DNA from: CAYFZR01 sp046760505 [NCBI: Candidatus Hydrothermarchaeota archaeon]
GTDB taxonomy: Archaea; CAYFZR01
NCBI GenBank assembly: GCA_046760505.1
Contig: JBHIEG010000001.1
Location: forward strand, 1 to 64,000
Direction of reading: 5' to 3'
Length of the DNA: 64,000 nt
Shown: positions 26,335 through 61,295 of the stretch, piece by piece
How positions within the stretch are numbered: position 1 is the stretch's first letter
How the letters are laid out: each line of letters opens with the position of its first letter
Made by a program: the position numbers and the translations under genes
The notes under the pieces: model-generated
The model's database searches: none
Told to the model about the DNA's origin: nothing
Seen by the model: the letters and a program-made list of their open reading frames with translations, nothing else

Positions 26335-26346
26335 GGGGTGAAAGAA

Positions 26347-27741
26347 ATGGAGGAAGAACTCGAAAAAATTCCGTTTGAGGAATATTGTAGAAAGGTATTC
26401 GATCCAAAGAAGGATTGGGAAAAACCTGAGGCACTAAAAGGCTGGAGACATCTTAGCCAAACGATGTACATCTTATCACCCCACGTAGGCGCTACACTAG
26501 GAGAATGGGGAGCAGAGGTCATAAAGATCGAGATGCCTAGGCTGGCAGACCCCATGAGGCATACATCTCCATTCAACGAAGCATATCTTTATCCTCTAAC
26601 CGATGAACGACCTATGACCGGAACAGGCTATGGATTCCTTCACGCCAACAGGAACAAGATAATGATGACCTTGGATTACCACCATCCCGAGGCGAAGGAA
26701 ATAATGCGGGACCTCTGGAGAATGTCGGACAGTCTAGCGGAGTGTTACCGTCCGGGTACATTTAACAGATGGGGCATAGGCTATCCTCAAGTATTAGAAG
26801 TTAATCCAGCCCTGATATACTGCTGGTTAGGAGGATTCGGAAGCCTCGGTCCCGGCAGAAGAAAAGGTTCATACGATATCCTAGGACAGAGTATAGGAGG
26901 ATTAGCAAGCATAACCGGACAGCACGAAGACGTTGTTAAGGTCGAAGACGAGTACCAGATCAAGTATGCGGGTGGCGGTTTCCCAGCAAAGCACACAAAC
27001 TGGATTATCGACTGGGTAGCAGGATTGATGTGCGCTTGCGGATTGGTAGCAGCAGGCTATTGGAGAAGAAAGACCGGCCTAGGAACTATGATCGACTTCT
27101 CTCAGGTTTCGGTATCGAACAGGTTTACGGGATATGGATTACCGCTCTATGGAAGATTTGGAGTTGTAAGACAGAGATGGGGTAACTGGGAGCCCCAGCT
27201 ATGTGTACATGGAATAATCATAGCGGGTAAATCTGATTTTCCAGACAGTGACAATCCTCAGGAAGCAGACGAAGCAAGATACCTGCTTGTAAGTGCCTTC
27301 CAAGACGAGGACTTCAAAGAACTCTGCGATTTAATAGGAAGAAAAGACCTGGCAGAAAAGTATGGAGAGGAGAAAGAAAGACTAAAGCCTCTGGCACAGA
27401 TGGAGATTTACGGGGCAGTGGAAAAATGGGCAAAAGATAAATCAAGAGCTGAGTGTGTAGAGGCTATTCAGGACAAAGGCCTGCTTGCATTTCCGGTAAT
27501 GAGTGCCGGAGATATATACAGATGGCCTCACATGTGGGAGAGAGGTAAGTTAAGATTCCTCGACGATCCAATATACGGTGACGTGTTGCAATCATGGGCC
27601 CCCGCATTGATGTCGGAGACCCCTCCAAGGGTCAAATGGGAATGCAGACCTCTGGGAGCAGATAATATAAAGATCTTGCATGACTTGCTCGGCATGCCCA
27701 TGGAAAAGATCAAAGAACTCTACGAGAAGGCGGTGATATAA
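26347..27741 (+). CDS. Class III (CaiB/BaiF) CoA-transferase, subunit B
   Basis: The 464-residue paralogue of the upstream subunit has [59 protein letters not shown] and LIYCWLGGFGSLGPG. GSYDILGQSIGGLASITGQ contains the expected catalytic Asp. PVMSAGDIYRWPHM and the C-terminal PPRVKWECRPLGADN are also typical. ATG at 26347 is preferred, with GGGGTG (26335-26340) 6 nt upstream; GTG at 26338 overlaps that site. It follows subunit A by 12 bp and the zinc-ribbon gene follows after one base. Both subunits keep the catalytic Asp, so both active sites may work. Confidence 0.88.
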   Translation: MEEELEKIPFEEYCRKVFDPKKDWEKPEALKGWRHLSQTMYILSPHVGATLGEWGAEVIKIEMPRLADPMRHTSPFNEAYLYPLTDERPMTGTGYGFLHANRNKIMMTLDYHHPEAKEIMRDLWRMSDSLAECYRPGTFNRWGIGYPQVLEVNPALIYCWLGGFGSLGPGRRKGSYDILGQSIGGLASITGQHEDVVKVEDEYQIKYAGGGFPAKHTNWIIDWVAGLMCACGLVAAGYWRRKTGLGTMIDFSQVSVSNRFTGYGLPLYGRFGVVRQRWGNWEPQLCVHGIIIAGKSDFPDSDNPQEADEARYLLVSAFQDEDFKELCDLIGRKDLAEKYGEEKERLKPLAQMEIYGAVEKWAKDKSRAECVEAIQDKGLLAFPVMSAGDIYRWPHMWERGKLRFLDDPIYGDVLQSWAPALMSETPPRVKWECRPLGADNIKILHDLLGMPMEKIKELYEKAVI

Positions 27742-27742
27742 G

Positions 27743-28240
27743 ATGTGTGATATCATCGATTGTCCGAAGTGCAGAACTGTCAACTACATAGATCCCTACT
27801 GTTTCTGGAACTGGGGTCCGGGAGTAATTGCGTGCGCTGGCTGCGGCCAAGCCTACGAAGTCTACTATGTAAATGGCTTAATGCAAGAAGGATACCCAAA
27901 GGAAACGGATAAGGAACCTGACGAACTAGTACTGTATGCAGACAAGCCGCTGGAAGGCTACGAATTTATTCCTCCTGGTACGCCAGGAAAAACAAAGGCT
28001 TTCAGATGCTTGATGAGAAATCCAGAAACTTACACAGGAAAGGCAAGAAAGATAAGCCACAGCATAAGGGGAAAGCCCCTCAGGGGATGGGCTGGACAGA
28101 AACCCTCTGCTAAAGTAGCGGGATCTCACCACTACGATGACTCTGAGTACTGGAAACCAGAGGCAGGAGAACTCAAGTACTATCCGGAGTTACTAAAGAA
28201 CAAAGGACCACAAGAACCAGGTAAAGGGAGGGCTTGGTGA
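27743..28240 (+). CDS. Cys-rich zinc-ribbon-like protein of the CoA-transferase operon
   Basis: The 165-residue protein opens MCDIIDCPKCRTVNYIDPYC, then VIACAGCGQAYEVYYVNG: two CxxC knuckles suited to a zinc ribbon or Fe-S site. The remainder is Pro-, Lys- and Tyr-rich, basic and apparently of low regular structure (KISHSIRGKPLRGWAGQKPS). No family recognised. It starts one base after CoA-transferase subunit B and overlaps the next gene's start as TGATG. Strict coupling suggests it is a subunit or assembly factor of the CoA-transferase or of a partner enzyme encoded elsewhere. Confidence 0.7.
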   Translation: MCDIIDCPKCRTVNYIDPYCFWNWGPGVIACAGCGQAYEVYYVNGLMQEGYPKETDKEPDELVLYADKPLEGYEFIPPGTPGKTKAFRCLMRNPETYTGKARKISHSIRGKPLRGWAGQKPSAKVAGSHHYDDSEYWKPEAGELKYYPELLKNKGPQEPGKGRAW

Positions 28241-30181: not shown

Positions 30182-31411
30182 GTGACAAGAAGGAGAGAGC
30201 CAGACAGGGGAGAAGGAATATTCTCCTGGATGAGGATGGACGAACCCCCAGAGGAAAAGTGGAAAAGAATAGAGGAAGAGATCGCGGAGGAAGAAGGTAA
30301 AACCTGGGTAAAATTAACAGATCTTGACGCCAACCTGGCGGACCCTTTTTTTTCTTATATTTGGTTCTTGGAGGGTTATGAAGAATCATCCAATATGTAT
30401 CTTATAGAGGGTGATTATCTAACTCTCGTTGACACAGGAAACGACATCTATGCTTTCTTTGAGTTGTTTGAACTGGGTTTTAAAGCAGAGGATATAAAAA
30501 AGATTTTTTTAACCCATGCTCACAACGATCATACCTTAGGCTTGATGGAACTCATGACCCGCTACGGCACATTTAAAGATTTCGAAGTAATTGTACACAA
30601 CTCGATGTCTACGGGTCTTCTTCCAAGAGCCATAGAACAAATGGCTAGAGGGGGAAAGGTAACTGGAGTAGATACTGGAGATACGGTAAATCTGAGCGGT
30701 CTTGATTTCAAAGTAATCTATACCCCCGGACATACCCAAGATTGCATTTGTCTTTATCACGAAAAAACTCAAACCCTTTTTTCTGGGGACACAGTGCTTT
30801 CGTTTGGTCTACCAACCCCTGATGAACGGATTGGGGGCAACTTACAAGACTATCTATTTTCCCTCAGGATCCTGTTGGAAGTGGACGTGAAACATCTTCT
30901 ACCGGGTCATGGCTTTCCTGAGTTCTTTACGGGAAAAAATGATGTTATGGGTACCTACCATGGCGTGATTCTTTCTCTCATACCGGAAGGGAGCACATGG
31001 ACCGAGGGGGCCATGGAACTAATGAAAAAAAACCTGCCTCATGAAGCAATCTTCTGCCTAAATAAAGCATTAGAAAAAGACGCTAATAATATACAAGCTC
31101 TGGGGTTGAAGGGATCATGCCTCACAGAGATTGGAAGAAACGAAGAGGCAATAGAATGCTTCGACAAAATTTTAGAGATTAGGAAAGATGAGGGAGCATT
31201 TTATAGTAAGGGAATGGCTCTAATAAAACTCAAGAGGCATGAGGAGGCTTTGGAATCTTTTGATGAGGCTTTGAAGATAAATCCAAGCTTTGAAGAGGCA
31301 AATGTGGGCAAAGGAATTGCCTTAATGGAACTTGGAAGGGAAGAGGAAGCGATGAAAATAGAGGCTTTCAAAAAGGCATTTGAATTATCTAAAGATTTTA
31401 CGAGTAAATAG
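30182..31411 (+). CDS. Metallo-beta-lactamase-fold hydrolase fused to TPR repeats (copy B)
   Basis: The MBL domain (residues ~42-280) has YLIEGDYLTLVDTGND, THAHNDHTLG, YTPGHTQDCICLYH, FSGDTVLS and LLPGHG. Three TPR units follow (LPHEAIFCLNKALEKDANN, RNEEAIECFDKILEIRKD, RHEEALESFDEALKINPSF). It is closely similar to copy A at 23339-24442 but carries a charged ~41-residue N-terminal extension. That extension depends on the GTG start at 30182; ATG at 30230 or 30236 would shorten it. Substrate unknown. Operon position after the 140-aa gene suggests joint expression. Confidence 0.85.
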   Translation: MTRRREPDRGEGIFSWMRMDEPPEEKWKRIEEEIAEEEGKTWVKLTDLDANLADPFFSYIWFLEGYEESSNMYLIEGDYLTLVDTGNDIYAFFELFELGFKAEDIKKIFLTHAHNDHTLGLMELMTRYGTFKDFEVIVHNSMSTGLLPRAIEQMARGGKVTGVDTGDTVNLSGLDFKVIYTPGHTQDCICLYHEKTQTLFSGDTVLSFGLPTPDERIGGNLQDYLFSLRILLEVDVKHLLPGHGFPEFFTGKNDVMGTYHGVILSLIPEGSTWTEGAMELMKKNLPHEAIFCLNKALEKDANNIQALGLKGSCLTEIGRNEEAIECFDKILEIRKDEGAFYSKGMALIKLKRHEEALESFDEALKINPSFEEANVGKGIALMELGREEEAMKIEAFKKAFELSKDFTSK

Positions 31412-31433: not shown

Positions 31434-32462
31434 TCATTTCTTATGAAACCTTGAAACTCTAATCATTTCCGATATGCTCTCGACAGGAGTTTCTGCAGGA
31501 ACAACACAGCTCGAACTCAAGATGAAATTCCTGTCGGCTATTCCTATTAGCCTTTCCGACTCTTCTCTCACTTTCTCTTTTCCTTTCATCAAAACGTTTG
31601 TCACATCCAAGTTACCCCAGAAAACAATGTCTTCCCTAATATCTCTTGGAGATATTGAAGACTCTACGCTAAGACAATCAGCACCGATCTTTTCCACCAT
31701 TTCTAGTATATTTCTGGCATCTCCACATATGTGCAATATGGTGGGGACATCTATATCGGCGATCAACTTTTTCAGATAAGGAAGACAGAATTCTTTAAAA
31801 TGTGTCGGTGATATCAACGTTGAACTCGGCTCTTTAATTAAAATGCCATGTGCTCCCTTCTCTTCTTGTGCTTTTGAATAACTAAGAGAATACTGATAGG
31901 AAAAATCAAGGATTTCCTTTGCAAAATCTGGATTCAGAATCAGGTCCTCCAAGAAAAGCTCTAATCCACGAATCCATGTTCCTGCTAACGTAAAAGGTCC
32001 CAGTACATCTCCGCAGACAAAAACGTCTTTTTTCTCAAGCATTAAAGTTAGGGGTTCAGCCCTCTCTTCATTGTAAGGATCTGGAACATCCAGATCTCCA
32101 AGCATTTTATTTTCTAAAGCAGGTTTCTCGATTGAAATAGATCCTCTCTCTGGAACTCTTAGTATCGTGCCCAATTCAGTTTCTAGTAGCAGATAGTTAG
32201 GGAATTTTTTAATGGAATTCTTTTCTTTTTCTGTAATGCCCTGGATGGTCTGATGATTCCATATCCAGTCGTATCCGAGACTTTCTTGGCAATAGATCTG
32301 GGCTCGAGCGTACATCTCGTTATTAAGTACGTATTCAAATGTGGATATGCCTGAATACTTGGATGCAAAGGCTATGTTAATCATTGGGGCAACAGGAATG
32401 AAATCTGGCTCTTCTTTGTTTAAAACGCTCATCATCCTCTCATGGGAGTTCAACTCTTTCAC
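31434..32462 (-). CDS. UroD/MtaA-family corrinoid-dependent methyltransferase (copy A)
   Basis: The 342-residue UroD-fold protein begins with NSHERMMSVLNKEEPDFIPV. It has CGDVLGPFTLAGTWIRGLE, ILIKEPSSTLISP, and the zinc-binding sequence ILHICGDARNIL (His and Cys), with the third ligand Cys in SSSCVVPAETP. That His-x-Cys...Cys set is characteristic of MtaA/MtbA-type methyltransferases, which move methyl groups between a corrinoid protein and a thiol, commonly coenzyme M. It is divergent from the SAM methyltransferase gene with only 46 bp between. GTG start; no clear Shine-Dalgarno site, possibly leaderless. Confidence 0.85.
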   Translation of the reverse strand: MKELNSHERMMSVLNKEEPDFIPVAPMINIAFASKYSGISTFEYVLNNEMYARAQIYCQESLGYDWIWNHQTIQGITEKEKNSIKKFPNYLLLETELGTILRVPERGSISIEKPALENKMLGDLDVPDPYNEERAEPLTLMLEKKDVFVCGDVLGPFTLAGTWIRGLELFLEDLILNPDFAKEILDFSYQYSLSYSKAQEEKGAHGILIKEPSSTLISPTHFKEFCLPYLKKLIADIDVPTILHICGDARNILEMVEKIGADCLSVESSISPRDIREDIVFWGNLDVTNVLMKGKEKVREESERLIGIADRNFILSSSCVVPAETPVESISEMIRVSRFHKK

Positions 32463-32508
32463 GATCTAAGTTTTAAATCTCAGGAGTTATATTAAGTTTG
32501 GGAATAAC

Positions 32509-33591
32509 ATGCGGAAAATCGGTATGAGAAAAGGCAAGCGTAGGGCAATAAACACGGTGGGTGAGATAAGTAAAGTTTTCGAAAAATCAGCTCATGAAAA
32601 ACGGTACGAAATAGAGATTAAAAAAATCCATGACAAAAATCCCCTTTGTAGATTAGTATGCGATCACGAAATAGGAGATAAAATGGAAAGAATTATTTAC
32701 CTGGTTCTTTTTCCATGGAGGGCAGAATTAGAGAGAGAAAATTTTGAGAAAGATGTTTACACATTGCTGAGATTAGAGAATGAGGAGTTAGAAGGGGCTC
32801 AAAGACACATGTACTTCCAATCCATCCAAGGTAAGTATCCTATTAGGAGCATGGAACTCTGGCTAGATAACAGAGGCCGGGCAAGACAAATTTCGAGAGA
32901 AGAAATATATTATTTCACCCTTATAGATAAGAAAAAGGAATTTTTCGAGAGATATGAAAGAGGAGCAATACCACCTAGGTTAAGTAAAGGTAAAAGAAGT
33001 GAGCCTGATATGGTGAGCGAGAAAAGAATCAGAAGTTTTATTGATATGTCTGAGAAATGGAGCGCAGACATAGTTTTAGACGTTGCAGCGGGTGTTAAAG
33101 ATTACATAAAAAAACTAATTGAAAGAAATTTTTTCGTAATTTGTGCTAACATTTCTTTTTCCTCACTAAAGAGCGTAAGAGACTCTTTTTCCGAAAAAAA
33201 TCTTGCCTTCTTAGTTTATGATGCCGATAAACGCTTGCCCTTCAAAGAGAACTCGTTTAACTACGTAATCTGCGATGCAGTCCTTGAGTATCTTCTCGAC
33301 CCAGTCTCATTCATCCGGCAAATTTCTGACTTACTACCATACGGCGGAGAGATGCTTCTCCTTGAGCCCATTAGATCAAAAGTAAAAGATGATTTCTATC
33401 CTCAGGATATGTGGGAGCTTGCCTTGTGGAGACCTTTGTACGATCCTCATTTCAACTTCGAAATTGTTCAGGAAAACCTTAAAAAATCTGGTTTTGAAGT
33501 AATAGAGAGAAGAGAGCTGGAATTTAGTTATTCTATATATGATGAGGAATTTTTCAGACAATCCATTTCCAGATGCCTTAAGATGGATTAA
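32509..33591 (+). CDS. SAM-dependent methyltransferase (class I) with unknown N-terminal domain
   Basis: Residues ~1-165 are an uncharacterised region containing IIYLVLFPWRAELERENFEK. Residues ~170-350 are a Rossmann methyltransferase domain: DIVLDVAAGVKDYIKKLI (degenerate motif I), FLVYDADKRLPFKENSFNYVICDAVLEYLLDP and LLPYGGEMLLLEPIRS. The substrate is not predictable. The gene lies between the divergent UroD copy A and the HgdB-like gene and could belong to the corrinoid cluster. A TATA-like GTTATATTAAG sits at 32486-32496. ATG at 32509; an alternative ATG lies at 32524. Confidence 0.7.
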   Translation: MRKIGMRKGKRRAINTVGEISKVFEKSAHEKRYEIEIKKIHDKNPLCRLVCDHEIGDKMERIIYLVLFPWRAELERENFEKDVYTLLRLENEELEGAQRHMYFQSIQGKYPIRSMELWLDNRGRARQISREEIYYFTLIDKKKEFFERYERGAIPPRLSKGKRSEPDMVSEKRIRSFIDMSEKWSADIVLDVAAGVKDYIKKLIERNFFVICANISFSSLKSVRDSFSEKNLAFLVYDADKRLPFKENSFNYVICDAVLEYLLDPVSFIRQISDLLPYGGEMLLLEPIRSKVKDDFYPQDMWELALWRPLYDPHFNFEIVQENLKKSGFEVIERRELEFSYSIYDEEFFRQSISRCLKMD

Positions 33592-33684
33592 TTGGGTTAG
33601 CAACTAAATCATAGTTATATTTTAGAAATCATACCGTTAACATTATATTCTCAAAACAAAGAAAAGTTATCAAGCGTGATAACA

Positions 33685-34857
33685 ATGCTTGGGGTCGTTG
33701 ATGTTTCTTATTATAGTGAGGTTAAAGAATTAGAGAGTATTCGTCTCTTATACCAATATAATGCCAGTTTATGGGACAGATGGGCCAAGCATGTTAGAAA
33801 AGGAGGAAAAGTTGTTGGAACCTTAGCATGTCCTCCAACAGAATTACTGAATGCTTATGATGTATTTACCATAGTCTACAAGAGGCGTGAAGACCTGAAT
33901 AGAGCGATCATAAAGGGAGACTACGAATTGAAGAAGTGGATCAGTCACTTTGGCGTGGGAGAATGTATCTGTCGCAACATAAGTGGGGGAGCAGGATCTC
34001 CAATTCTTGGCGCTTCTCCTGGTTATAATCTTGTAGTTACAGATTTCGTTGAAAAAGTACCGGAATGGTACTATTTTTTAAAAAAAATTGGCAACGAATG
34101 GAATTTTGAATTTTTAGAAATTGAAAGAGGTCTGAGCAGGAGAGAGAGGGAAGAGATTATCTACGATAGGTTGCTCTATTTGAATGATTTGTTAATTCAA
34201 TTAACAGGTGAGAAGGTCTCCGAAGACAGGATAGTCGAGAGTTGCGAAATGACAAACGAGATTAGTTTAGTATTCCAAGAAATCGATACGCTTATAAGAA
34301 AATCTCATCCTCTGAGGAGTTTTGATGTCTACAACCTCAAGGTCATATGCACGGATTATGTTGGCGGCGAAGTTGATGCAATCTTGGACTTGTGCTATCG
34401 TTTGATAGAGGAACTGAAAACCAAGTTAAAAGAGGCAGAAAGAAGAGAGGCAAAAAGACTTCTTCTTGTAGGGGGATTCAGAAACGAATTTTTGGAGCCA
34501 ATAGAGCGTAATGGCGGTATTGTTACAGCGGCATGGCCATATCAACGGTTTACATCTCATAGAACCCCAATTAAAATAAGATCTGACGTATTCAGGTCAC
34601 TCGCCAGATGGATATCCAATCACTCTGGAATAGGAACACCTAGAGAAGACGCTTTGGATATGAAGGATATGATAAAAACCTACGAAATCGATGGAGTTAT
34701 ATACCACAAGCAGTGTCCCTTCGGGATTAAAGCGGTATACGAATCCTACAAGGATATAAGGGATTCAATAAAAATTCCATTCCTCACCATAAACCCTGAA
34801 GAGTGCAACGTTGAGAACAAAATTCGAGAATTTCTGCTTGCTCTACATGAAACCTGA
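33685..34857 (+). CDS. 2-hydroxyacyl-CoA dehydratase subunit D (HgdB/BcrC-like) family protein
   Basis: The 390-residue protein has GTLACPPTELLNAYDVF, the N-terminal Cys signature of the family. It then has ECICRNISGGAGSPILGASPGYNLVVTDFVEKVPEWYYFL, RLLLVGGFRNEFLEPIERNGG and the C-terminal VIYHKQCPFGIKAVYESYKDIRDSIKIPFLTI. HgdB-fold proteins bind a [4Fe-4S] cluster that receives high-energy electrons from an ASKHA activator. Here the neighbour is a corrinoid reductive activator, not a HgdC-type activator. ATG at 33685 follows GTGATA (33676-33681). TTATATTTTAG at 33615-33625 is a promoter candidate. It overlaps nothing but is 10 bp from the activator start. Confidence 0.8.
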   Translation: MLGVVDVSYYSEVKELESIRLLYQYNASLWDRWAKHVRKGGKVVGTLACPPTELLNAYDVFTIVYKRREDLNRAIIKGDYELKKWISHFGVGECICRNISGGAGSPILGASPGYNLVVTDFVEKVPEWYYFLKKIGNEWNFEFLEIERGLSRREREEIIYDRLLYLNDLLIQLTGEKVSEDRIVESCEMTNEISLVFQEIDTLIRKSHPLRSFDVYNLKVICTDYVGGEVDAILDLCYRLIEELKTKLKEAERREAKRLLLVGGFRNEFLEPIERNGGIVTAAWPYQRFTSHRTPIKIRSDVFRSLARWISNHSGIGTPREDALDMKDMIKTYEIDGVIYHKQCPFGIKAVYESYKDIRDSIKIPFLTINPEECNVENKIREFLLALHET

Positions 34858-34867
34858 AGGGCTCTTG

Positions 34868-36373
34868 ATGGAAAAAATCAAGGTCAAATTCATTGGAGAC
34901 TCCCTGAGAAATCCAGTATCTGTCAAGGTAAAACGAGGGACCTCAGTTCTAGATGCAGCAATCAAAGGAGGAGTAGAAATTGATGCTCCGTGTGGTGGAA
35001 AAAATAGGTGCGGAAAATGCATCGTTAAGGTAAACTCTCAGCGTGTTCTGGCTTGCTCCACCAAGATCTTTCATGATATCATTGTAGAAGTAGAGAGCCA
35101 AACTGCTAGAATTTTAAAAGATCTCGCTATATCGAATTTTGAGGTAAACCATTCTTTTCGCATTAAAAATTTGGATGGTTCATCTGTTTTGATGAGAGAT
35201 GGAGAGATATTGGGATATACCAACGATTTATACGGAGTTTCACTTGATATAGGAACTACAACTCTCTCGGGATATCTTGTAGACCTTAAAAATGGAGTTC
35301 TAATGGATAAAAAATCCATTACCAATCCTCAAGTATCCTTTGGTGCTGATGTGATATCAAGAATTTCCTACGCAATAAAAAACGGAAGGCATGAGCTCAC
35401 TAATTTTCTTCTAAAAGGTATCAATCAACTCATAAGAGAACTCTGCAAGAATGATGTTGACCCCAGTAGTATTTACTACTCTACCGTTGTGGGGAATTCA
35501 GTTATGCATCATTTTTTACTTGGTCTAGACACCAAGAATCTTGGTTTTTATCCGTACAAACCCCTCATTAAAAAAGGCACAGAAAAAAAAGCAAAGGACA
35601 TTGGAATAAGTATAAACCCCTCAGGATACGTATATTTCTTGCCCCTAGTCAACGGCCACGTGGGTAGCGATGCCCTGGGCATGATCATCGCTCTTGAGAT
35701 TCATAAATCAAATGAAACCTGTTTGGCGATAGATCTCGGAACCAATGGCGAGATCATTATAGGCAATAAGAAGAAAATACTCGCTTGTTCTTCCGCGGCA
35801 GGTCCTGCTTTCGAGGGCACCAATATTTCAAGCGGCATGAGGGCTACTGACGGTGCAATAGAACGTGTATGGAAAAATTTTGGATACAAAACCATAGGTA
35901 ATAAACCAGCAAGGGGAATATGCGGCTCTGGCTTAATAGATGCGATTGCTGAAATGCTAAAATCTGGCATAATAAATAGAAATGGAAAGTTGCTTAAGGA
36001 ATTCAGCATTGGAGGGATCAGAATAACCCAGAGAGATATAAGGGAATTCCAACTTGCAAAGGCAGCTATTAGAACAGGAATAGACATCCTTGTAAACATG
36101 CTTGAACCTCCAAAAAAAATTTACATTTCCGGGGCTTTTGGTAACTATATAGATAGAGAAAACGCAATTTACTTGGGCTTGCTCCCTCAATCCAAGCATA
36201 TATTCTATGCAGGAAATGCAGCTGGTCTTGGGGCGATTAAATCTATGTTGTCCGATTCGATAAAAAAAGAGGCTGAAGAAATTGCGGAAAAAATTGAATA
36301 CATAGAGTTATCTACTCAACCGGAGTTTGAATCGATATTCATGAAGAACATAAGGTTCGGAGAATATGCTTAG
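34868..36373 (+). CDS. Reductive activator of corrinoid proteins (RACE/RamA-type, ASKHA with N-terminal [2Fe-2S])
   Basis: The 501-residue protein has a plant-type [2Fe-2S] domain at residues ~1-85, with PCGGKNRCGKC (near 40-50) and a distal Cys in VLACST. The ASKHA/DUF4445 activator domain follows: GVSLDIGTTTLSGYLVDL, GNSVMHHFLLGL, CLAIDLGTNGEIIIG, CSSAAGPAFEGTNISSGMRA, GICGSGLIDAIAEML and ISGAFGNYIDRENA. Known role: ATP-driven reduction of Co(II) to Co(I) in corrinoid proteins. N-terminal [2Fe-2S] is typical of bacterial RACE proteins; methanogen RamA instead has C-terminal [4Fe-4S] clusters. ATG at 34868 gives a start 10 bp after the HgdB-like stop; ATG at 34847 would overlap it. It overlaps the corrinoid gene by 8 bp. 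Confidence 0.92.
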   Translation: MEKIKVKFIGDSLRNPVSVKVKRGTSVLDAAIKGGVEIDAPCGGKNRCGKCIVKVNSQRVLACSTKIFHDIIVEVESQTARILKDLAISNFEVNHSFRIKNLDGSSVLMRDGEILGYTNDLYGVSLDIGTTTLSGYLVDLKNGVLMDKKSITNPQVSFGADVISRISYAIKNGRHELTNFLLKGINQLIRELCKNDVDPSSIYYSTVVGNSVMHHFLLGLDTKNLGFYPYKPLIKKGTEKKAKDIGISINPSGYVYFLPLVNGHVGSDALGMIIALEIHKSNETCLAIDLGTNGEIIIGNKKKILACSSAAGPAFEGTNISSGMRATDGAIERVWKNFGYKTIGNKPARGICGSGLIDAIAEMLKSGIINRNGKLLKEFSIGGIRITQRDIREFQLAKAAIRTGIDILVNMLEPPKKIYISGAFGNYIDRENAIYLGLLPQSKHIFYAGNAAGLGAIKSMLSDSIKKEAEEIAEKIEYIELSTQPEFESIFMKNIRFGEYA

Positions 36374-36980
36374 GGAGGCAATTGTAGAAGGGAAAATCAA
36401 TGAGATAGAGGAAATAATAAGAGATCTTTTAAAAAGTGAGAATCCAAACTCAATACTAAAAGAAATGATCAAAGCGATGGAAATAGTAGGAGATTTGTTT
36501 GAAAAAAAAGAGTATTACGTTCCAGAAGTCCTTCTTTCTGCCCATACAATGCAGAAAGGTCTAAACATCTTAAAACCCCATTTAGTTGTAGAAGAAGTTA
36601 ATGTCCCGGGAAAGGTGCTCATAGGATCTGTCGAGGGAGACGTCCATGATATAGGAAAAAATCTTGTAGCGATGTTTTTAGAGGGATCAGGCTTTGAAGT
36701 CCATGATTTAGGTAGGGATGTGCCCATATCGAAGTTCATCGAGAAAACAAAGGAAATTGAGCCTGATATTTTGGCCCTTTCAGCCCTCATGACAACCACA
36801 ATGGAAAAGATGAGGGAGACAATAGAGAGACTCAGAAAAGAGGGATTGAGAGAAAAGGTTAAGGTAATAGTGGGTGGAGCATCTGTTACAGAAGAGTTCG
36901 CTAAAGAAATAGGGGCTGATGGATATGCTGAAGATGCAGTCAAGGCAGTTAGCCTTTGCGAGAAGTTAATGAAAGGTTGA
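36366..36980 (+). CDS. Corrinoid (cobalamin-binding) methyltransferase protein, MtaC/MtbC/MttC type
   Basis: The 204-residue protein has a helical B12-binding cap (residues ~1-85, with YYVPEVLLSAHTMQKGLNIL). The Rossmann-like cobalamin domain begins GSVEGDVHDIGKNLVAMFLEG; DVHDIG near 93-98 supplies the lower-axial His. LSALMTTTMEKMRETIE and VIVGGASVTEEFAKEIGADGYAEDA are canonical. It shuttles methyl groups between a donor-specific methyltransferase and the UroD-type methyltransferases encoded nearby. Overlap with the activator gene by 8 bp implies co-translation. Confidence 0.95.
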   Translation: MLREAIVEGKINEIEEIIRDLLKSENPNSILKEMIKAMEIVGDLFEKKEYYVPEVLLSAHTMQKGLNILKPHLVVEEVNVPGKVLIGSVEGDVHDIGKNLVAMFLEGSGFEVHDLGRDVPISKFIEKTKEIEPDILALSALMTTTMEKMRETIERLRKEGLREKVKVIVGGASVTEEFAKEIGADGYAEDAVKAVSLCEKLMKG

Positions 36981-36991
36981 ATTTTTAAGTA

Positions 36992-37966
36992 TCACCCAGA
37001 AGAGTCAGCGAGCCTTCCAGCCTCTACGAAGATTTTGAGTCTTTCTGGAGGAGTATCCATCCTTATATGAGACCCTGTGCTCAGAATAAACCCTTTTTTA
37101 CCGATTTTGTGGACTAGATCCGATACCTCATTTACAATACCGTTTTTTTCCTGTCTAATTAATCTTTCAGGGCTATAATTTCCCATTATCGGTCTTTTTT
37201 TTATCTTTGAAATATCGGTATGCTCAGAAAAACTGGGTACTGACCTTAGAGATAAGAATTCTCTCATTATCGGGCTAGGGTCTCCACAAATGTGCAATAT
37301 CGCGTCTCCCTTAATTTTCTTTAGGATTTTTTTTTGAAAAGGATAGGAATACCTCTTATATACCTGAGAAGAGATGATATCGGGATTCGATGCTGAGTCT
37401 AAAATGAATATAGCGTCTGCGTAGTCTAATTGGACGTTAGCACAGTTTGATACAAATTCAGCAGATATTTTCAACCACTCTTTTACCATATCTGGCTCTG
37501 AGAGTATTTTTATCAAAAAATCCTCCAGTTCAAACATCCATGTCGCGCAGAATGTAAATGGTCCCAGTACTGTGCCGCATATAAACCCTGAGGTTCTTTT
37601 CCTTAAATCTTCTAGCACTTTGTTTCTTAAATCATAAAATTCAAAACTAGAGTTATGTTTAGAGACCCACGGATACCCTTTCTTTGGTACGGTTATTTGA
37701 ATTCCCAATTCAGTTTCAAATATCATATTGTCTCCAGCTATTTTTCCTTCAAAAGCAAACTCGTAGAACCAGTCTTTCCATAGCCAGTCGTAGCCGAAGT
37801 AATTTTTGGATTCGATCAAAATGTCCGCGTATACTTTAGGGTTGTTTAGGACTTTTCTTAGATCAATTCCCATTGCTGAAGCCAGATAACCAACATCCAC
37901 CAATGGCGCTACCGGTAACTTTTCGTTCCTGTTATTTATAGCATCCTTCAGACTCATGCTTTTCAA
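36992..37966 (-). CDS. UroD/MtaA-family methyltransferase (copy B), altered zinc site
   Basis: The protein has LPVAPLVDVGYLASAMG, YFGYDWLWKDW, CGTVLGPFTFCATWMFELEDFLI, FILDSASNPDIIS and ILHICGDPSPIMREF, which retain the His-x-Cys pair. STGSHIRMDTPPE aligns with SSSCVVPAETP of copy A, so the third zinc ligand Cys is replaced by Ser (a His follows). It starts at TTG 37966 with AGAGG upstream, or ATG 37957, and lacks ~15 N-terminal residues seen in copy A. The longer ORF to 38209 is rejected because its hydrophobic N terminus overlaps the divergent TPR gene. Its zinc chemistry or acceptor thiol may differ from copy A. Confidence 0.78.
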   Translation of the reverse strand: MKSMSLKDAINNRNEKLPVAPLVDVGYLASAMGIDLRKVLNNPKVYADILIESKNYFGYDWLWKDWFYEFAFEGKIAGDNMIFETELGIQITVPKKGYPWVSKHNSSFEFYDLRNKVLEDLRKRTSGFICGTVLGPFTFCATWMFELEDFLIKILSEPDMVKEWLKISAEFVSNCANVQLDYADAIFILDSASNPDIISSQVYKRYSYPFQKKILKKIKGDAILHICGDPSPIMREFLSLRSVPSFSEHTDISKIKKRPIMGNYSPERLIRQEKNGIVNEVSDLVHKIGKKGFILSTGSHIRMDTPPERLKIFVEAGRLADSSG

Positions 37967-39232: not shown

Positions 39233-40192
39233 TCATCTTTTTAATTTCTGAAAAATCTTTTGAACTCTTTCTATCAAATCCTCTCTTATTTCTTTTTTCT
39301 CAATTTTTCCAGGATCTTCTTCTTGTTTGTACTCAATTTCTGCTAGTTCACAAATAACACCATAGATTGCTTGCTCCGCAACCTTAATAACCGATCCACC
39401 ACTCAGAATATAAAGTAATTTACCGTTACATACACTTTTAGCGTTTAATTTCAAGATCCTTGTGAATTTAGGATAAAATTCCCAACTCAACTTAAATGAG
39501 CCGTAATCGAGGTAATGGGAATCGTGTCCGAAAATAACCATTATCATCTCAGGATTAAACTTTTTTGTGAGTACAGGCACGATGGAATCTACCACGTAAA
39601 GGAATTCATTGTCCACTATATCTCGAGGTAGGGGAAAATCTATATTTTTGTTATGTAAATCAACCCTTTCCTCTGTTCCTCCATGAAAATTCAGGTGAAA
39701 AACCTCTTTATCCTGTTCAAAAAAATCCCTAGTTCCGTCACCAAAATGGGGATCGATGTCAACTATGAAGAATTTATTAACTCCATAATTTTTTCTTAGA
39801 TATTCAACCAATATTGCTACGTCATTGAAAAAACAAAAGCCCCAGGCACTCTCTTTACTTGCATGGTGTCCTGCTGTGCCGACGTATGCGAAGGCATTTT
39901 CAAATTCTCCTCTAATCAGAGATTCTCCACACACCAAGACGCTACCAGCGGATAGCAAGGCGATGTCGAAGTAATCTGTAGCCATTACGCTTGAGATGTG
40001 CTTTCCACTATGAACTTTCTTCAAGAGATCAAGAGAGACAGGTGAGGGTTTTCTAACATGAATATTATTTTTATCAGTAAGTGATTTAGCCTTTAAGTAA
40101 TCAAACGAGGGATTCACTCTATATTTGGTTGTCCAGTATCCGTGTTTTCCAAAATCTTCATGGTACGATATCAAGGTCTTTTTAATCGCCAT
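39233..40192 (-). CDS. Histone deacetylase/AcuC-fold protein
   Basis: The 319-residue protein has GHHASKESAWGFCFFNDVAI (catalytic His pair), VDIDPHFGDGTRDFF (metal Asp and His; the usual HH is HF) and GHDSHYLDYGSFKLSW (metal Asp). The usual catalytic-Tyr motif EGGY is LSGGSV, so the transition-state Tyr seems replaced by Ser. Arginase/deacetylase-fold enzymes remove acyl groups from lysines or polyamines; here activity may be altered. The ATG is preceded by TTTAT with no Shine-Dalgarno site. It lies downstream of, and on the same strand as, the MoxR-VWA-GXGXG operon, 83 bp from it. Confidence 0.85.
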   Translation of the reverse strand: MAIKKTLISYHEDFGKHGYWTTKYRVNPSFDYLKAKSLTDKNNIHVRKPSPVSLDLLKKVHSGKHISSVMATDYFDIALLSAGSVLVCGESLIRGEFENAFAYVGTAGHHASKESAWGFCFFNDVAILVEYLRKNYGVNKFFIVDIDPHFGDGTRDFFEQDKEVFHLNFHGGTEERVDLHNKNIDFPLPRDIVDNEFLYVVDSIVPVLTKKFNPEMIMVIFGHDSHYLDYGSFKLSWEFYPKFTRILKLNAKSVCNGKLLYILSGGSVIKVAEQAIYGVICELAEIEYKQEEDPGKIEKKEIREDLIERVQKIFQKLKR

Positions 40193-40275
40193 ATAAACGG
40201 GCCTTGATAGTTTTCTAAAAGAAATGTGAGTAGTTTTAATCTTGCCCTCCTCTCCAAGCTTAGTTATTTAAAATT

Positions 40276-41157
40276 TCATGTTCTGAAAGGTATCATGTCA
40301 AACCTAACCGGTATGCCTATTTTTTGCTCGATCAACCTGCCTTTGTGGTATATTTTTCCTCCCTTTCTTCTTTCAGTTACGGAAGTATATTCTCCATCTA
40401 AGTGGATTTCTCCTCCGATCATAAAAAGTCCAACGTGTTCTCCTGCCCTGCCCTTTATTCTGATTGAGCCTTTTGTCATCCAGTTCCCCACCATGTCTTG
40501 AGTATCTCCATGGATGATGATTTCCCCTCCAAGCATATTGTATCCAAGCATGTATCCTGTGTTTCCTTTTATCTCCATTTTACCGCCCCACATGTAGTGA
40601 CCTGCCTTATGACCTGCATCTCCATGAATTATTATCTCTCCCCCGTACATGTCTGATCCGGCTTTCTCTCCTGCATTTCCCTTAATCTCTATCCGTCCTG
40701 ACCTCATCATGTGCCCGAGACGATCTCCAACATTTCCTTCAATTATTATTCTTCCTCCTTGGAGAAATACGCCAACATAATCGAGGGGATCTCTTAGCTT
40801 CCTTAAATCAAGGCACATATCTTCTTCTCTCCTGACATTAATTAAGGCGGAGAGAAAAACCCCTGCTTTGGATTTAAAATCCTCTATATCTGTGTAAAGA
40901 TCTTGAAGTTTCCACAAGTCCTTGGAGAATTCCTCTACTGTCTTTATGCTATAATTTAAGTTTTTTAGGCTATTGTATGCGATTTTATAATCGTTCTGGA
41001 TGATTGTTGATTTCTTTTCCATGAAGGAACCAAATAACTCCCTAATGGTTTCCATTTCAAGAACTTTCTCGCTCTTCTCTACCTTACTTTCTTTCTTGAT
41101 TTCAACTTCGCTTGAGATTTCTGAATATGTCTTCCCGAATAATCTCTTCCTTAACAT
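40276..41157 (-). CDS. GXGXG-motif beta-helix protein
   Basis: Residues ~1-120 are charged and helical. Residues ~125-275 form about six to seven 19-residue beta-helix turns: GRIIIEGNVGDRLGHMMRS, GRIEIKGNAGEKAGSDMYG, GEIIIHGDAGHKAGHYMWG and so on. This is the GXGXG fold of glutamate synthase alpha C-terminal domains and formylmethanofuran dehydrogenase subunit C. Here it stands alone with a helical domain, so it is probably structural rather than FwdC. It starts one base after the HExxH/VWA gene and is co-transcribed with it. Confidence 0.8.
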   Translation of the reverse strand: MLRKRLFGKTYSEISSEVEIKKESKVEKSEKVLEMETIRELFGSFMEKKSTIIQNDYKIAYNSLKNLNYSIKTVEEFSKDLWKLQDLYTDIEDFKSKAGVFLSALINVRREEDMCLDLRKLRDPLDYVGVFLQGGRIIIEGNVGDRLGHMMRSGRIEIKGNAGEKAGSDMYGGEIIIHGDAGHKAGHYMWGGKMEIKGNTGYMLGYNMLGGEIIIHGDTQDMVGNWMTKGSIRIKGRAGEHVGLFMIGGEIHLDGEYTSVTERRKGGKIYHKGRLIEQKIGIPVRFDMIPFRT

Positions 41158-41158
41158 A

Positions 41159-42949
41159 CTAGAATTTCCTAATTCCTTGTTTTGTCAGGTCAATCATCAA
41201 CTTCAGTAGATCCTTCCTGTTTCTTACATGATTGACATCGAAACCTGCTTCTTTAAGATCATATCCAGTTTTACTTTCCGTTTCCACCTCTATAAATGAT
41301 AGATAGTTCTTTTTTGCAACATCGATGAATTCGCTTTTTATTTTCTGCCAGTTATGGATCTGTCCGTCTGAGAGCATGATGATAATATTCCCGCCTCCAC
41401 CAAGTTCGGTTTTAACGATATCAATATCGATAATGGTATTTCCAAACTGAGGAGTTAATGCTAGCTTTTTTATCTCAGATATCCTCGAATACGTTTTCCA
41501 CCCGGTTTTCAGTGTTTTATCTGAGAAGTTTATAAGGTTGTATCTCACGTAAGGGGCTATTCCATAAGACTGAATGTACTTAATTATTCCATAAAGACCC
41601 AGAAGCGCATGATGGTACTTGCTATCATCACCCCACTCAACGATACTTTCCCTCTTAAGGATAAGCTCTTGGTATTTGCTTTCATCTCCAACTTGAACTA
41701 TGCTTACGCCTTCAACATCCTCTTGCATGCTCCCAGATGTGTCTATTATGAAACAAAAGTCAGGCATCCTCCCAAAGCCAGACTTTGCAGGTATCGTTAG
41801 GGAATAATCAAATCTTGGAACCTGAAAGTTTATGGGTCTTTTTATCATTTGCCTGAACGGGCTATCTGGATCAGGTACAAGCCTTCTAAAAACAATCCTT
41901 TCTGGATCGTCTTTATCCTTTTCAAATTTCTTGAAGCAATACTTCATTACCGGATATCCAAATCCTTCCCCTGTTCCTTCTGCCTTTATGAATATTCTGG
42001 AGGAAAGAGCATCGTATAACAAGTCTAAAAACTCAAATTTATCCATGTGTTCCGGAATTTCTCTTACATCATCAGATGGTTTTTTTGATCTCATGTATAC
42101 CTTCAATACTAGATCCTTCTTTACCCTTGGAATATCCATCATCTTCTCGAAACTGCTCTCAGGACCCATCGTAATTTGTTCAAATTTTTCATCTATCAAA
42201 GTTGCCATGTGGTAGGCGAAGGTATAACTCTTGTATGGCCAGTCCTTCTTATAGGAAAGGGCGCGTGCATTATCCTCTATGCTTTCAGTAATTCCCAATT
42301 CTCTGGTAATTTTATCTATAACATCGTCTATTATTTTATCATTGGAGAAGAATTCTTTTAATAGAAGACGGTCCCGCTCCACACCCCAAGATCTAATATT
42401 TAACTTAACTAGAGCCTCAGAGAATGGATCAAAACCTTTGTTAATCAATGCCCTGTCGTAGTAGAATATAACCTGCCCAGCATATGGGGGATATAGAAGC
42501 TTCGCAAGTGTATTTGCCACGAGATCTTCAAAGGCACTTGCGATGTAACCCTGAGCCCCCTCCATTCCTCTCAGCTTAAGGGCCTTGGTAACCGATCCGA
42601 GGATATCACTGTGGTAGATTATGTCTGTTGGACAGCCATTTAATTTTCTTCCGTTGTATTCTAAGTTGTATTTCCAATGAAAGCTCTCGTGTATTAGTAG
42701 ATCTCGGGATACGATAAAGAATATGTCACCGGGATCTAGTCCCTGAGTTAAGAGATATTCTTTTACTGCGGGGTTAATCCTCCACTCTGGATTTATATCT
42801 ATTTTGATGTTCCATCTATAGTCGATGTCTGAATTTATGTTTCCCCTTTCTGTGTTGAGGTAATTTACTCTTACTCCGCCACCTATCATTCCCAATTCTT
42901 TATTCTTAAAGTCCCTCAATCTTTGTATTAGATCCATTTGTCTCTCCAT
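41159..42949 (-). CDS. HExxH metallopeptidase-like protein with C-terminal VWA domain (DUF2201 type)
   Basis: The 596-residue protein has an N-terminal domain with LLIHESFHWKYN (HExxH near residue 86), matching the metallopeptidase-like N-terminal region of DUF2201 proteins. A long middle region follows. From ~395 the VWA domain begins DFCFIIDTSGSMQEDVEG (MIDAS DxSxS) and includes IIIMLSDGQIHNW. Such proteins pair with MoxR AAA ATPases, as here: its start overlaps the ATPase stop by one base (TAATG). The pair may remodel or insert metals into target complexes; the target is unknown. Confidence 0.82.
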   Translation of the reverse strand: MERQMDLIQRLRDFKNKELGMIGGGVRVNYLNTERGNINSDIDYRWNIKIDINPEWRINPAVKEYLLTQGLDPGDIFFIVSRDLLIHESFHWKYNLEYNGRKLNGCPTDIIYHSDILGSVTKALKLRGMEGAQGYIASAFEDLVANTLAKLLYPPYAGQVIFYYDRALINKGFDPFSEALVKLNIRSWGVERDRLLLKEFFSNDKIIDDVIDKITRELGITESIEDNARALSYKKDWPYKSYTFAYHMATLIDEKFEQITMGPESSFEKMMDIPRVKKDLVLKVYMRSKKPSDDVREIPEHMDKFEFLDLLYDALSSRIFIKAEGTGEGFGYPVMKYCFKKFEKDKDDPERIVFRRLVPDPDSPFRQMIKRPINFQVPRFDYSLTIPAKSGFGRMPDFCFIIDTSGSMQEDVEGVSIVQVGDESKYQELILKRESIVEWGDDSKYHHALLGLYGIIKYIQSYGIAPYVRYNLINFSDKTLKTGWKTYSRISEIKKLALTPQFGNTIIDIDIVKTELGGGGNIIIMLSDGQIHNWQKIKSEFIDVAKKNYLSFIEVETESKTGYDLKEAGFDVNHVRNRKDLLKLMIDLTKQGIRKF

Positions 42950-44274
42950 TACTCAACAAATACTTTCAGTATGGGATATCTTTTGACGAGTGTTTTATAC
43001 TCTTCCTCTGATTTCTTGCTGAGATCTCCTTGTTCTTGAGCAATATTGTTTATTTCTCGAAAGATCTCTCCGCAAAATTCCCATTCATGATTAAGTTTAT
43101 CCAGGGTGCTCGTACCTAACTTTCCCTTAACAGAGTCTAAAAAAGCCTCTTCTATCAGTTCTCTTTTTTCATCAAAGCCTTCTTGGAATCTTCTAGTAAG
43201 GTCTAATATGGCTAAACTCGGGTTGGAGCAGTACTCCCTCCTGACCCAGTAATCGTCTATTATATTCGAGTACGGTGCCATTATTTTGAATGCCTCAAAT
43301 ACATCTCTATAAGAGACGATCTCGTCTGTATTGCCCTTTGCTCCTGCAACAACTTTTATTCCGCAAACGAATTTCTTCAGTGCTTTTTCTCCTCTTACAG
43401 ATAGTGGTCTAATGTAGCCGCAGCCATCCCCCAGCCTTGAGCAGCCCTCGCATATCTCAGGGATTGCATTTGGTATCATCCTTTTGCTCTTAGTGCCATA
43501 TGATTTTTCAGGAAGGCAATAATCCAGACCATCTCTGAGAAAACTTAAGGCTAAATAAGCAGAGATGTCCATTTCAACATTGTTTAGAAGATTTTTTACA
43601 TATATGATGTCCTCAATATGGTCTTCTCTTTTGGAATCCAATATTATTGGATCTGTATCCGAGAGAATTATCTCTAAATTGTCCTTTGTATCAGGGGGAT
43701 GGTTATCCATATCTAGCACGATATGAAATCTGTCTGTCAGACCCGGATCGACATCAAAAGTTCCGTAGTACCTTCCATCTCCTATGTTGGCAGAGGCTAT
43801 CACAACATGATAACCCTTGTATCCCAGAGGGATCCTAGTACCCTTTCCGGTCTCTATGTAGCCATCAAACATGTTGAAAAACTGGTTCTGCGTAATGCTT
43901 GGAGCCCTATTGATTTCATCTATCAAAACTAAAGGGATCTTGATCGCTGGGGTCAACTCTTTTTCAAGCTTATCGATGTTGAATTTTTCATAGATTTCCT
44001 TCGGATCAGAGTCTGGCCTTGCTCTTAGATATACTGAATTTCCTCCGAACCAATTGTTGGCAACATCATTCATTAATTGGGTCTTTCCCTCTCCTCGCTC
44101 GCTGCAGAGTAAGAGATTTAGCCTGCTTATCATGGCTGCTTTCACTATGTCTTCGATTATTAGAGGAAAACCGTCTATTTCCGCTACTGTATTATTGTTT
44201 CTGTAGACTTGAAGTCTTGGGAGCCTCTTCACTCTTTCGACCATATCCCAATAAACATTATTCTCCATTTCCAC
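42949..44274 (-). CDS. MoxR-type AAA+ ATPase
   Basis: The 441-residue ATPase has Walker A SERGEGKTQLMNDV (near residue 60), Walker B PLVLIDEINRAP (near 118) and sensor-type SANIGDGRYYG. FDVDPGLTDRFHIVLDM corresponds to the Arg-finger region of MoxR ATPases. EICEGCSRLGDGCGY is a Cys-rich insert that might bind zinc. The C-terminal third is helical. MoxR ATPases act with VWA proteins as chaperones or in metal insertion. It is the first gene of the operon that continues with the VWA and GXGXG genes. Confidence 0.88.
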   Translation of the reverse strand: MEMENNVYWDMVERVKRLPRLQVYRNNNTVAEIDGFPLIIEDIVKAAMISRLNLLLCSERGEGKTQLMNDVANNWFGGNSVYLRARPDSDPKEIYEKFNIDKLEKELTPAIKIPLVLIDEINRAPSITQNQFFNMFDGYIETGKGTRIPLGYKGYHVVIASANIGDGRYYGTFDVDPGLTDRFHIVLDMDNHPPDTKDNLEIILSDTDPIILDSKREDHIEDIIYVKNLLNNVEMDISAYLALSFLRDGLDYCLPEKSYGTKSKRMIPNAIPEICEGCSRLGDGCGYIRPLSVRGEKALKKFVCGIKVVAGAKGNTDEIVSYRDVFEAFKIMAPYSNIIDDYWVRREYCSNPSLAILDLTRRFQEGFDEKRELIEEAFLDSVKGKLGTSTLDKLNHEWEFCGEIFREINNIAQEQGDLSKKSEEEYKTLVKRYPILKVFVE

Positions 44275-61212: not shown

Positions 61213-61295
61213 GACTTCTAAGCATTCCTTTTTATTTTTTTATACCTGATAGATGCCGCTAAGGTTTAAATCATTTGATAACTTTTATAGCTCCT

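What the first reader, a model, noticed from the sequence alone, without database searches (positions are those of the whole stretch)
31434..37966. Corrinoid methyl-transfer locus without a recognisable methyl-donor methyltransferase
Seen: two MtaA/UroD-like proteins, a corrinoid protein, a RACE-type activator, a SAM methyltransferase and an HgdB-like protein are clustered. Established: such systems normally include a substrate-specific MtaB, MtmB, MttB or MtbB protein. None is visible here and no long frame with an internal stop suggests a pyrrolysine-containing one. Inference: one UroD-type protein, or the HgdB-like protein, may accept the methyl donor directly, as UroD-fold O-demethylases do.
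Basis: partly seen in the sequence, partly recalled or inferred. Interest (0 to 1): 0.78.

Follow-up and report, generated by a model that had tools for sequence, protein, structure and literature searches.

The report
Two-UroD corrinoid methyl-transfer gene cluster
An archaeal gene cluster that moves methyl groups using vitamin B12 pairs two related UroD-fold enzymes, one of which probably takes the methyl group from its still unknown donor; it resembles published sulfur/selenium methyl-transfer clusters but belongs to a separate archaeal branch.

Summary
The locus is real: two UroD-fold proteins (A 31434-32462, B 36992-37957), a SAM methyltransferase, a very divergent HgdB-like protein, a [2Fe-2S]-type RACo activator and a corrinoid protein. 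None of 53 window proteins scanned (of 61 ORFs of 120 aa or more) matches a MttB, MtaB, MtmB, MtbB or MtrH family, and no long frame is opened by reading TAG through.

This is less odd than it looked. Clusters of two or three UroDs, a corrinoid protein and a RACE, without a pterin methyltransferase, are published as mlp gene clusters (Kountz & Balskus) and linked to methyl-selenium/sulfur transfer; many also carry a dicubane protein, a relative of HgdB.

The window is not a type 1 mlp cluster. UroD A and B fall in a separate 100/100 clade with UroDs of one archaeal phylum that includes a record titled Hydrothermarchaeota: 6 of 23 genomes there have relatives, and two show UroD-corrinoid-UroD-AAA in a row. 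Their corrinoid proteins are 53-65% identical to the window's.

Best reading: one UroD takes the methyl from the donor, the other passes it on, probably to a thiol. UroD A keeps the His-Cys-Cys zinc set; UroD B lost one Cys. Donor, acceptor and the role of the HgdB-like protein are unknown.

The parts
31434..32462 (-). UroD A: UroD-fold corrinoid methyltransferase, zinc set His244/Cys246/Cys319 intact
   Evidence: PF01208 4e-49; motif; closest relatives 35-43% identical
31506..31733 (-). Zinc-ligand motif of UroD A (HxC ... C)
   Evidence: alignment to 4ay7 and within 115 UroD rows
32509..33591 (+). SAM-dependent methyltransferase with about 180 residues of unassigned N-terminal part; link to the module only by position
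   Evidence: PF08241 1.5e-10, residues 190-283
33676..34857 (+). Divergent HgdB/dicubane-like protein; probable Fe-S protein, role unknown
   Evidence: PF06050 2.1e-18; best NCBIfam NF040772 double_cubane 33.5 bits against a cut-off of 350; 2 of 3 family Cys aligned
34868..36373 (+). RACo/RACE reductive activator of the corrinoid protein, N-terminal [2Fe-2S]-type domain
   Evidence: PF14574/PF17651/PF00111; 3zyy 6e-77; Cys43/49/52/64 counted from the TTG at 34865; start
36366..36980 (+). Corrinoid protein, methyl carrier
   Evidence: PF02310 3e-31, PF02607 6e-19; DxHxxG; 53-65% to corrinoid proteins beside the related archaeal UroDs
36992..37957 (-). UroD B: UroD-fold paralogue, His222/Cys224 kept, third zinc ligand replaced by Ser296; long branch
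   Evidence: PF01208 6e-31; AlphaFold2 model pLDDT 92.2, best match 4ay7 Z 33.6

Best explanation
This is a self-contained corrinoid methyl-transfer module built on two UroD-fold methyltransferases. One UroD takes a methyl group from a small methylated compound onto Co(I) of the corrinoid protein. The other moves it from methyl-Co(III) to an acceptor, most likely a thiol (or selenol). RACo rescues Co(II) with ATP. The likelier split is UroD A as the thiol-side enzyme (intact His-Cys-Cys) and UroD B as the donor-side enzyme (changed site). Shown: gene content, kinship of the two UroDs, partnership of such UroDs with a matching corrinoid protein in relatives, ligand residues. Inferred: the reaction, which UroD does what, S/Se chemistry, and the HgdB-like protein as an Fe-S helper.
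For: Both UroDs and their archaeal relatives form a 100/100 clade, and the corrinoid proteins form a matching clade (FastTree support 0.98). The relatives sit with a corrinoid protein: UroD-CorP-UroD-AAA in G256 and G261; CorP-UroD-AAA-AAA with the other UroD on another contig in G252, G253 and G257. MttB was found in 1 of the 6 genomes with UroD relatives, about 735 kb from the operon and beside its own corrinoid protein. Two UroDs + CorP + RACo without MtrH also occur in L004, L022, L026 and L064 and are the core of published mlp clusters (PMC10418091: abstract, Results, Discussion, legends read). A UroD-type donor enzyme is proven elsewhere: CdmB, without zinc (PMC13222342, passages). UroD B models as a complete UroD barrel, closest to 4ay7.
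Against: No substrate or acceptor evidence comes from the neighbourhood. In the related genomes both kinds of UroD are His-Cys-Cys where readable, so the A/B division is not conserved as a residue difference. No pterin (MtrH-type) acceptor enzyme is in the window, but the genome is unknown and one could lie elsewhere. UroD A and B are not on the strand of the four-gene run. UroD B is a long branch and could be regulatory. In G252, G253 and G257 the two UroDs are on separate contigs, and in G255 only one kind was seen. RACo was seen next to a relative in only one related genome (G257, 1.5 kb from the first UroD).
Confidence: 0.62

Rival explanations
1. Both UroDs are acceptor-side (MtaA-like) enzymes, or one is inactive, and the donor methyltransferase is encoded elsewhere in the genome.
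For: Both score best against MtaA/CmuA-type models. One related genome, G256, has a TAG-containing MttB elsewhere. No whole genome is held.
Against: That MttB has its own corrinoid protein alongside. PF06253 was not found in the other 5 of 6 genomes with UroD relatives, completeness not told. MtaB, MtmB and MtbB were not searched there.
Confidence: 0.17
2. It is an O-demethylase or haloalkane dehalogenase system of the Mto/Mtv/Cdm kind that uses a distant methyl-H4MPT transferase as acceptor enzyme.
For: The next UroD outside the clade, in an Archaeoglobi genome (87/74, not a firm branch), sits with a corrinoid protein, an MtrH-family gene and an MFS transporter. UroD B lost a Cys ligand, as O-methyl enzymes do (PMC10418091), and CdmB works without zinc (PMC13222342).
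Against: No MtrH-type gene in the 53 window proteins scanned, and no separate MtrH ORF in the stretches around the related UroDs. His-Cys-Cys is kept in UroD A and in 9 of 9 readable relatives.
Confidence: 0.15
3. The HgdB-like protein is the catalyst: a 2-hydroxyacyl-CoA dehydratase or benzoyl-CoA-reductase-like enzyme activated by RACo, and the UroDs are incidental.
For: HgdB, RACo and the corrinoid gene are packed head to tail (10 bp gap to the ATG of RACo, 8 bp overlap). Corrinoid activators and HgdB activators both couple ATP to electron transfer (PMC6739815, passages).
Against: Very divergent: 33.5 bits against a cut-off of 350 for its best NCBIfam model, one of three family Cys not aligned, no second HgdB-type subunit or BcrA-type activator among the neighbours scanned. 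RACo with a corrinoid protein needs no such substrate.
Confidence: 0.06

Closest known systems
[quoted passage not shown] Kountz & Balskus, PMC10418091)
   Same: Several UroD methyltransferases with one corrinoid protein and a bacterial-type RACE, no pterin methyltransferase; His-Cys-Cys in UroD A; many MGCs also hold a dicubane cluster protein
   Different: UroD A/B lie outside the clade of MtaA/MtbA-type and MGC-like UroDs; UroD B lacks the third ligand; genes on both strands; HgdB-like protein far below the dicubane cut-off
   Same: UroDs in one 100/100 clade; corrinoid proteins 53-65% identical; two kinds of UroD in the genome (one kind seen in G255)
   Different: One or two AAA ATPases follow the second UroD; no HgdB-like or SAM methyltransferase homologue of the window's in the fetched stretches; RACo seen only in G257; 9 of 9 readable UroDs keep His-Cys-Cys
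MtaA/MtbA/MtsA (methylcobamide:CoM methyltransferases)
   Same: UroD fold, HxC...C zinc set in UroD A; 4ay7 is the best structure match of UroD B
   Different: 105.4 and 104 bits for UroD A against cut-offs of 400 and 600; separate clade
Mto/Mtv/Odm O-demethylases and CdmB
   Same: UroD-fold donor enzyme with corrinoid protein and activator
   Different: Those systems have a pterin acceptor enzyme; none in the window; no member of these was available by name for the trees

Membership tests
Type 1 mlp gene cluster | At least two UroD Mlps + corrinoid protein + RACE in one cluster | tested here: met
Type 1 mlp gene cluster | No pterin (MtrH/H4folate) methyltransferase in the cluster | tested here: met
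   53 of 61 window ORFs of 120 aa or more scanned
Type 1 mlp gene cluster | The UroDs are Mlp2 and Mlp3 by sequence | tested here: not met
   Stand-ins: UroDs of A. noterae L219, Syntrophomonas L064 and Oscillospiraceae L022, judged MGC by gene content (L022 also has three nitrogenase-like genes); the authors' own sequences were not at hand. UroD A+B joined to that group is rejected, lnL 92 lower, p-AU 8e-95; the whole archaeal clade as its sister is not rejected, p-AU 0.17
Type 1 mlp gene cluster | His-Cys-Cys zinc ligands in the Mlps | tested here: inconclusive
   UroD A yes, UroD B His-Cys-Ser; the paper itself allows exceptions among Mlps1
MtaA/MtbA (CoM methyltransferase) | NCBIfam equivalog cut-off | tested here: not met
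   UroD A 105.4 and 104 bits against 400 and 600; UroD B 70.1 and 56.6
O-demethylase system (Mto/Mtv/Odm) | Pterin methyltransferase (MtrH/MtvA-type) in the cluster | tested here: not met
   none in the 53 window proteins scanned
O-demethylase system (Mto/Mtv/Odm) | Demethylates methoxyaromatics | not testable with these tools
   needs enzyme assay
HgdB / double-cubane protein (PF06050) | Pfam gathering score | tested here: met
   67.4 bits against 28.4
HgdB / double-cubane protein (PF06050) | NCBIfam double_cubane cut-off | tested here: not met
   33.5 bits against 350
HgdB / double-cubane protein (PF06050) | Three cysteines conserved in the family | tested here: inconclusive
   2 of 3 aligned, the third column is a gap, in a remote alignment to 19 sequences
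RACo/RACE activator | N-terminal ferredoxin domain, RACo middle and C-terminal ASKHA domains | tested here: met

The most novel reading that the evidence does not exclude
The window and one deep archaeal phylum share an undescribed class of corrinoid methyl-transfer system built on a paired UroD duplication. In this lineage UroD B has lost a zinc cysteine and become the enzyme for a non-thiol methyl donor, while UroD A keeps the thiol acceptor. A dedicated HgdB-like Fe-S protein feeds RACo with low-potential electrons; the related operons use an AAA ATPase pair for corrinoid reactivation instead.
Probability: 0.2. Interest if true: 0.72.

Novelty: new variant of a known kind. Interest (0 to 1): 0.5.

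Why it matters
A corrinoid cluster without MtaB, MttB, MtmB or MtbB is easily taken for incomplete. This case suggests that a UroD pair can be the whole methyl-transfer machine, in an archaeal branch outside the published mlp clusters. It gives a defined clade, a recurring gene set in relatives and one residue change (Cys to Ser in UroD B) on which donor-side and acceptor-side roles can be tested. It also points to possible methyl-sulfur or methyl-selenium turnover in uncultured archaea.

Tried and rejected
Relatives of the HgdB-like protein: a pattern scan of the 84,980-genome collection gave 14 pattern matches, none a relative; 16 archaeal genomes, none (the tool warns that an empty answer shows nothing without a positive control); plasmids, none. 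An HMM of 19 HGD-D proteins finds the window protein (34 bits) but no ORF in L001-L153 at E<=1e-3, nor at E<=1e-4 in the other loci fetched by then outside the HGD seed loci L154-L183. AlphaFold2 on the HgdB-like protein alone failed (pLDDT 33.9), so no fold search was made with it.

Placing the organism failed: the methylthiotransferase at 61275 is at most 52% identical to its best match in the 8, 120 and 81 genomes searched.

Pairing UroD A and B with the two kinds of UroD in the relatives is unresolved: A+B as a pair is as good as the free tree (p-AU 0.52); a last test (UroD A with the second-UroD group) did not finish. In the first tree, without those relatives, A and B paired at 90/95.

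CdmB, MtoB, MtvB and the C. ljungdahlii Mlps could not be put in the trees: their sequences were not at hand. CdmB is not among the rows. Literature: searches for Hydrothermarchaeota with corrinoid methyltransferases (3 papers, 20 of 124 listed), UroD with 2-hydroxyacyl-CoA dehydratase (12 of 15), dicubane with selenium (12 of 19), UroD superfamily with thiol (15 of 48) and AAA ATPases with corrinoid methyltransferases (10 of 50) listed no paper that I recognised as describing this archaeal module; of the papers on that phylum I saw only passages (PMC6946796, PMC9635834). The library lacks most subscription papers.

My MtrH profile was built from hits that included a UroD-MtrH fusion, so it also marks many UroDs; I counted only MtrH hits without a UroD hit. 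A Walker A regex found nothing; the AAA assignments rest on Pfam.
Full report
WHAT IS THERE. The window looks archaeal (a fused Fae-HPS protein, CofD, an aconitase-X pair and an archaeal-type methylthiotransferase; the taxonomic weight of these genes is recalled), but its species is not held and no near relative was found: the methylthiotransferase reaches at most 52% in 8, 120 and 81 genomes. The six genes of the finding are confirmed. On the + strand run a SAM methyltransferase, an HgdB-like protein, RACo and a corrinoid protein; the HgdB stop and the RACo ATG (34868) are 10 bp apart and RACo overlaps the corrinoid gene by 8 bp. UroD A lies divergently before this run and UroD B convergently after it. 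UroD B starts best at the ATG at 37957.

ABSENCE OF A DONOR ENZYME. In 53 window proteins scanned with Pfam, of 61 ORFs of 120 aa or more, none matches MttB, MtaB, MtmB, MtbB or MtrH at E<=0.001. Reading TAG through gives no stop-to-stop frame of 250 codons or more with two open pieces of at least 70 codons.

THE TWO UROD PROTEINS. A and B are 28% identical over 328 alignment positions. Both hit MtaA/CmuA models but far below the curated cut-offs. Aligned with 113 UroD proteins from the fetched loci, UroD A has the His-Cys-Cys zinc set of MtaA (His244, Cys246, Cys319); UroD B keeps His and the first Cys but has Ser296 at the third position. Of the 115 rows 79 are His-Cys-Cys; 13 keep His-Cys but not the last Cys (8 with His there, 2 with a gap), and UroD B is the only one with Ser. 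UroD B does not look like a wreck: a 25-row alignment gives an AlphaFold2 model with pLDDT 92.2 and pTM 0.91, whose best solved match is the M. mazei methylcobalamin:CoM methyltransferase 4ay7 (Foldseek 1.2e-17; VIA Z 33.6, rmsd 2.4, 302 aligned). UroD decarboxylases follow closely at Z 32.4, so the match shows the fold, not the function.

CLOSE RELATIVES ELSEWHERE. UroD A was searched in five archaeal phyla (names inferred from the record titles of the centre genomes). In the phylum of G008, which includes G005, a record titled Hydrothermarchaeota, 6 of 23 genomes have a match at E<=1e-28, the best 4e-77. Elsewhere the best are 3e-40 in 148 genomes around an Archaeoglobi record, 7e-36 in 227 around a Lokiarchaeota record, 1.5e-33 in 115 around Methanofastidiosum and nothing at E<=1e-35 in 292 around a Methanomassiliicoccales record (the tool warns that an empty answer has no positive control). 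Thermoproteota (with Bathyarchaeia) were not searched.

THE RECURRING GENE SET. In G256 the order is UroD, corrinoid protein, UroD, AAA ATPase, AAA ATPase, on one strand; G261 has UroD, corrinoid protein, UroD, AAA before the contig ends; G252, G253 and G257 have corrinoid protein, UroD, AAA, AAA with the other UroD on another contig; G255 shows only the first kind of UroD. Pfam confirms AAA for the 9 of these genes in the five genomes and for one more beside the first UroD of G252. The corrinoid proteins are 53-65% identical to the window's; the next best by score of 83 compared is 49% (one shorter match of 50%). RACo lies 1.5 kb from the first UroD in G257 and was not seen in the other stretches. 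No homologue of the window's HgdB-like protein or SAM methyltransferase shows up in these stretches at E<=1e-6.

TREES. With these relatives, UroD A and B and the archaeal UroDs form one clade at 100/100 (13 rows, 12 rows), apart from Methanosarcina-type MtaA/MtbA rows and from the UroDs of the mlp-like clusters. Joining A and B to the latter group costs 92 log-likelihood units (p-AU 8e-95); the whole archaeal clade as sister to that group is not rejected (p-AU 0.17). Which kind of UroD corresponds to A and which to B is open. Of the 11 related UroDs 9 can be read at the third ligand and all 9 have Cys (some pairs are near-identical), so among these the loss is specific to UroD B.

MTTB IN THE RELATED PHYLUM. 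PF06253 was found in 1 of 23 genomes, G256. That gene holds one in-frame TAG at codon 333, lies about 735 kb from the UroD operon on the same contig, and has its own corrinoid gene directly upstream. It therefore does not look like the missing partner. The other five genomes with UroD relatives have no match, but their completeness is not told.

COMPARISON WITH KNOWN SYSTEMS. Kountz & Balskus (PMC10418091; abstract, Results, Discussion and legends read) describe type 1 mlp gene clusters: two or three UroD proteins, a corrinoid protein and a bacterial-type RACE, without a folate methyltransferase. They assay one Mlp2 as a methylcobalamin:selenide methyltransferase, note dicubane proteins in many clusters and nitrogenase-like genes in the non-selenium ones, and state that S-methyl enzymes of this superfamily have His-Cys-Cys while O-methyl enzymes lose one or both Cys. 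The window shares this layout, including an HgdB-like neighbour, but not the Mlp2/Mlp3 kinship. My stand-ins for that family are loci judged by gene content: Acetoanaerobium noterae L219, Syntrophomonas L064 and Oscillospiraceae L022, the last with three nitrogenase-like genes. Of 21 further ORFs of 240 aa or more in those four loci, 11 were scanned: none is MttB or MtaB. CdmB (PMC13222342, passages) is a proven zinc-free UroD donor enzyme. Mto (PMC8630106, passages) and Bathyarchaeia MtgB (PMC10989822, passages) are other archaeal solutions with a separate acceptor enzyme.

THE HGDB-LIKE PROTEIN. It passes the PF06050 cut-off (67.4 against 28.4 bits) but scores 33.5 against 350 for its best NCBIfam model, double_cubane. 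Cys99 and Cys347 align with two of three family cysteines; the third column is a gap (remote alignment). No relative was found by the methods used. Its place directly before RACo suggests an electron-transfer role, in line with the biochemistry of such activators (PMC6739815, passages), but this is inference.

VERDICT. A real, unusual but not isolated locus: a two-UroD corrinoid methyl-transfer module, most likely for sulfur or selenium methyl compounds, in an archaeal branch outside the published mlp clusters. Substrate, acceptor and the roles of A and B need experiments.

Noticed in passing
L218:10856-12310 (G256:C9, PF06253 match 1898904-1900310): A trimethylamine methyltransferase (MttB) gene with one in-frame TAG at codon 333 and a corrinoid gene just upstream, in the phylum that includes a Hydrothermarchaeota record: probable pyrrolysine use there. 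pylBCDS and tRNA-Pyl were not found or excluded; an ARAGORN run on L218 printed nothing.
   Followed up: partly
L207:7766-9527, L212:3258-4160, L213:2021-3796, L208:6975-8783, L210:4779-6617: One or two small AAA ATPases of about 290-310 residues directly follow the second UroD in five related genomes: a possible alternative corrinoid reactivase or chaperone.
   Followed up: partly
L207:1262-2215, L022:11363-12508, L064:545-1606: NMT1/THI5-type substrate-binding proteins near UroD clusters in G256 and in two mlp-like loci: a possible hint at a shared imported substrate.
   Followed up: partly
window 24862-28240: Two family III CoA-transferases and a 165-residue Cys-rich protein without a Pfam match in a tight run, in the 4 kb block with the highest G+C of the window (44% against 37-40%).
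   Followed up: no
window 23339-24442 and 30182-31411: Two related metallo-beta-lactamase + TPR proteins in opposite orientation, flanking the CoA-transferase stretch.
   Followed up: no
window 39233-44274: Histone-deacetylase-like protein, GXGXG-domain protein, a 596-residue protein with a VWA-like DxSxS motif but no Pfam match, and a weakly MoxR-like AAA protein in a run beyond UroD B.
   Followed up: no
window 44987-46726: B12-binding radical SAM protein 7 kb from the corrinoid cluster.
   Followed up: no
window 6578-6671: ARAGORN tRNA-Ile (tat) call lies inside the solute-binding protein gene 5278-6873 and is not matched by Rfam: probably false.
   Followed up: partly
L034:11540-13531: A Chloroflexi locus with a UroD fused to an MtrH-type domain in one 664-residue frame.
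   Followed up: no
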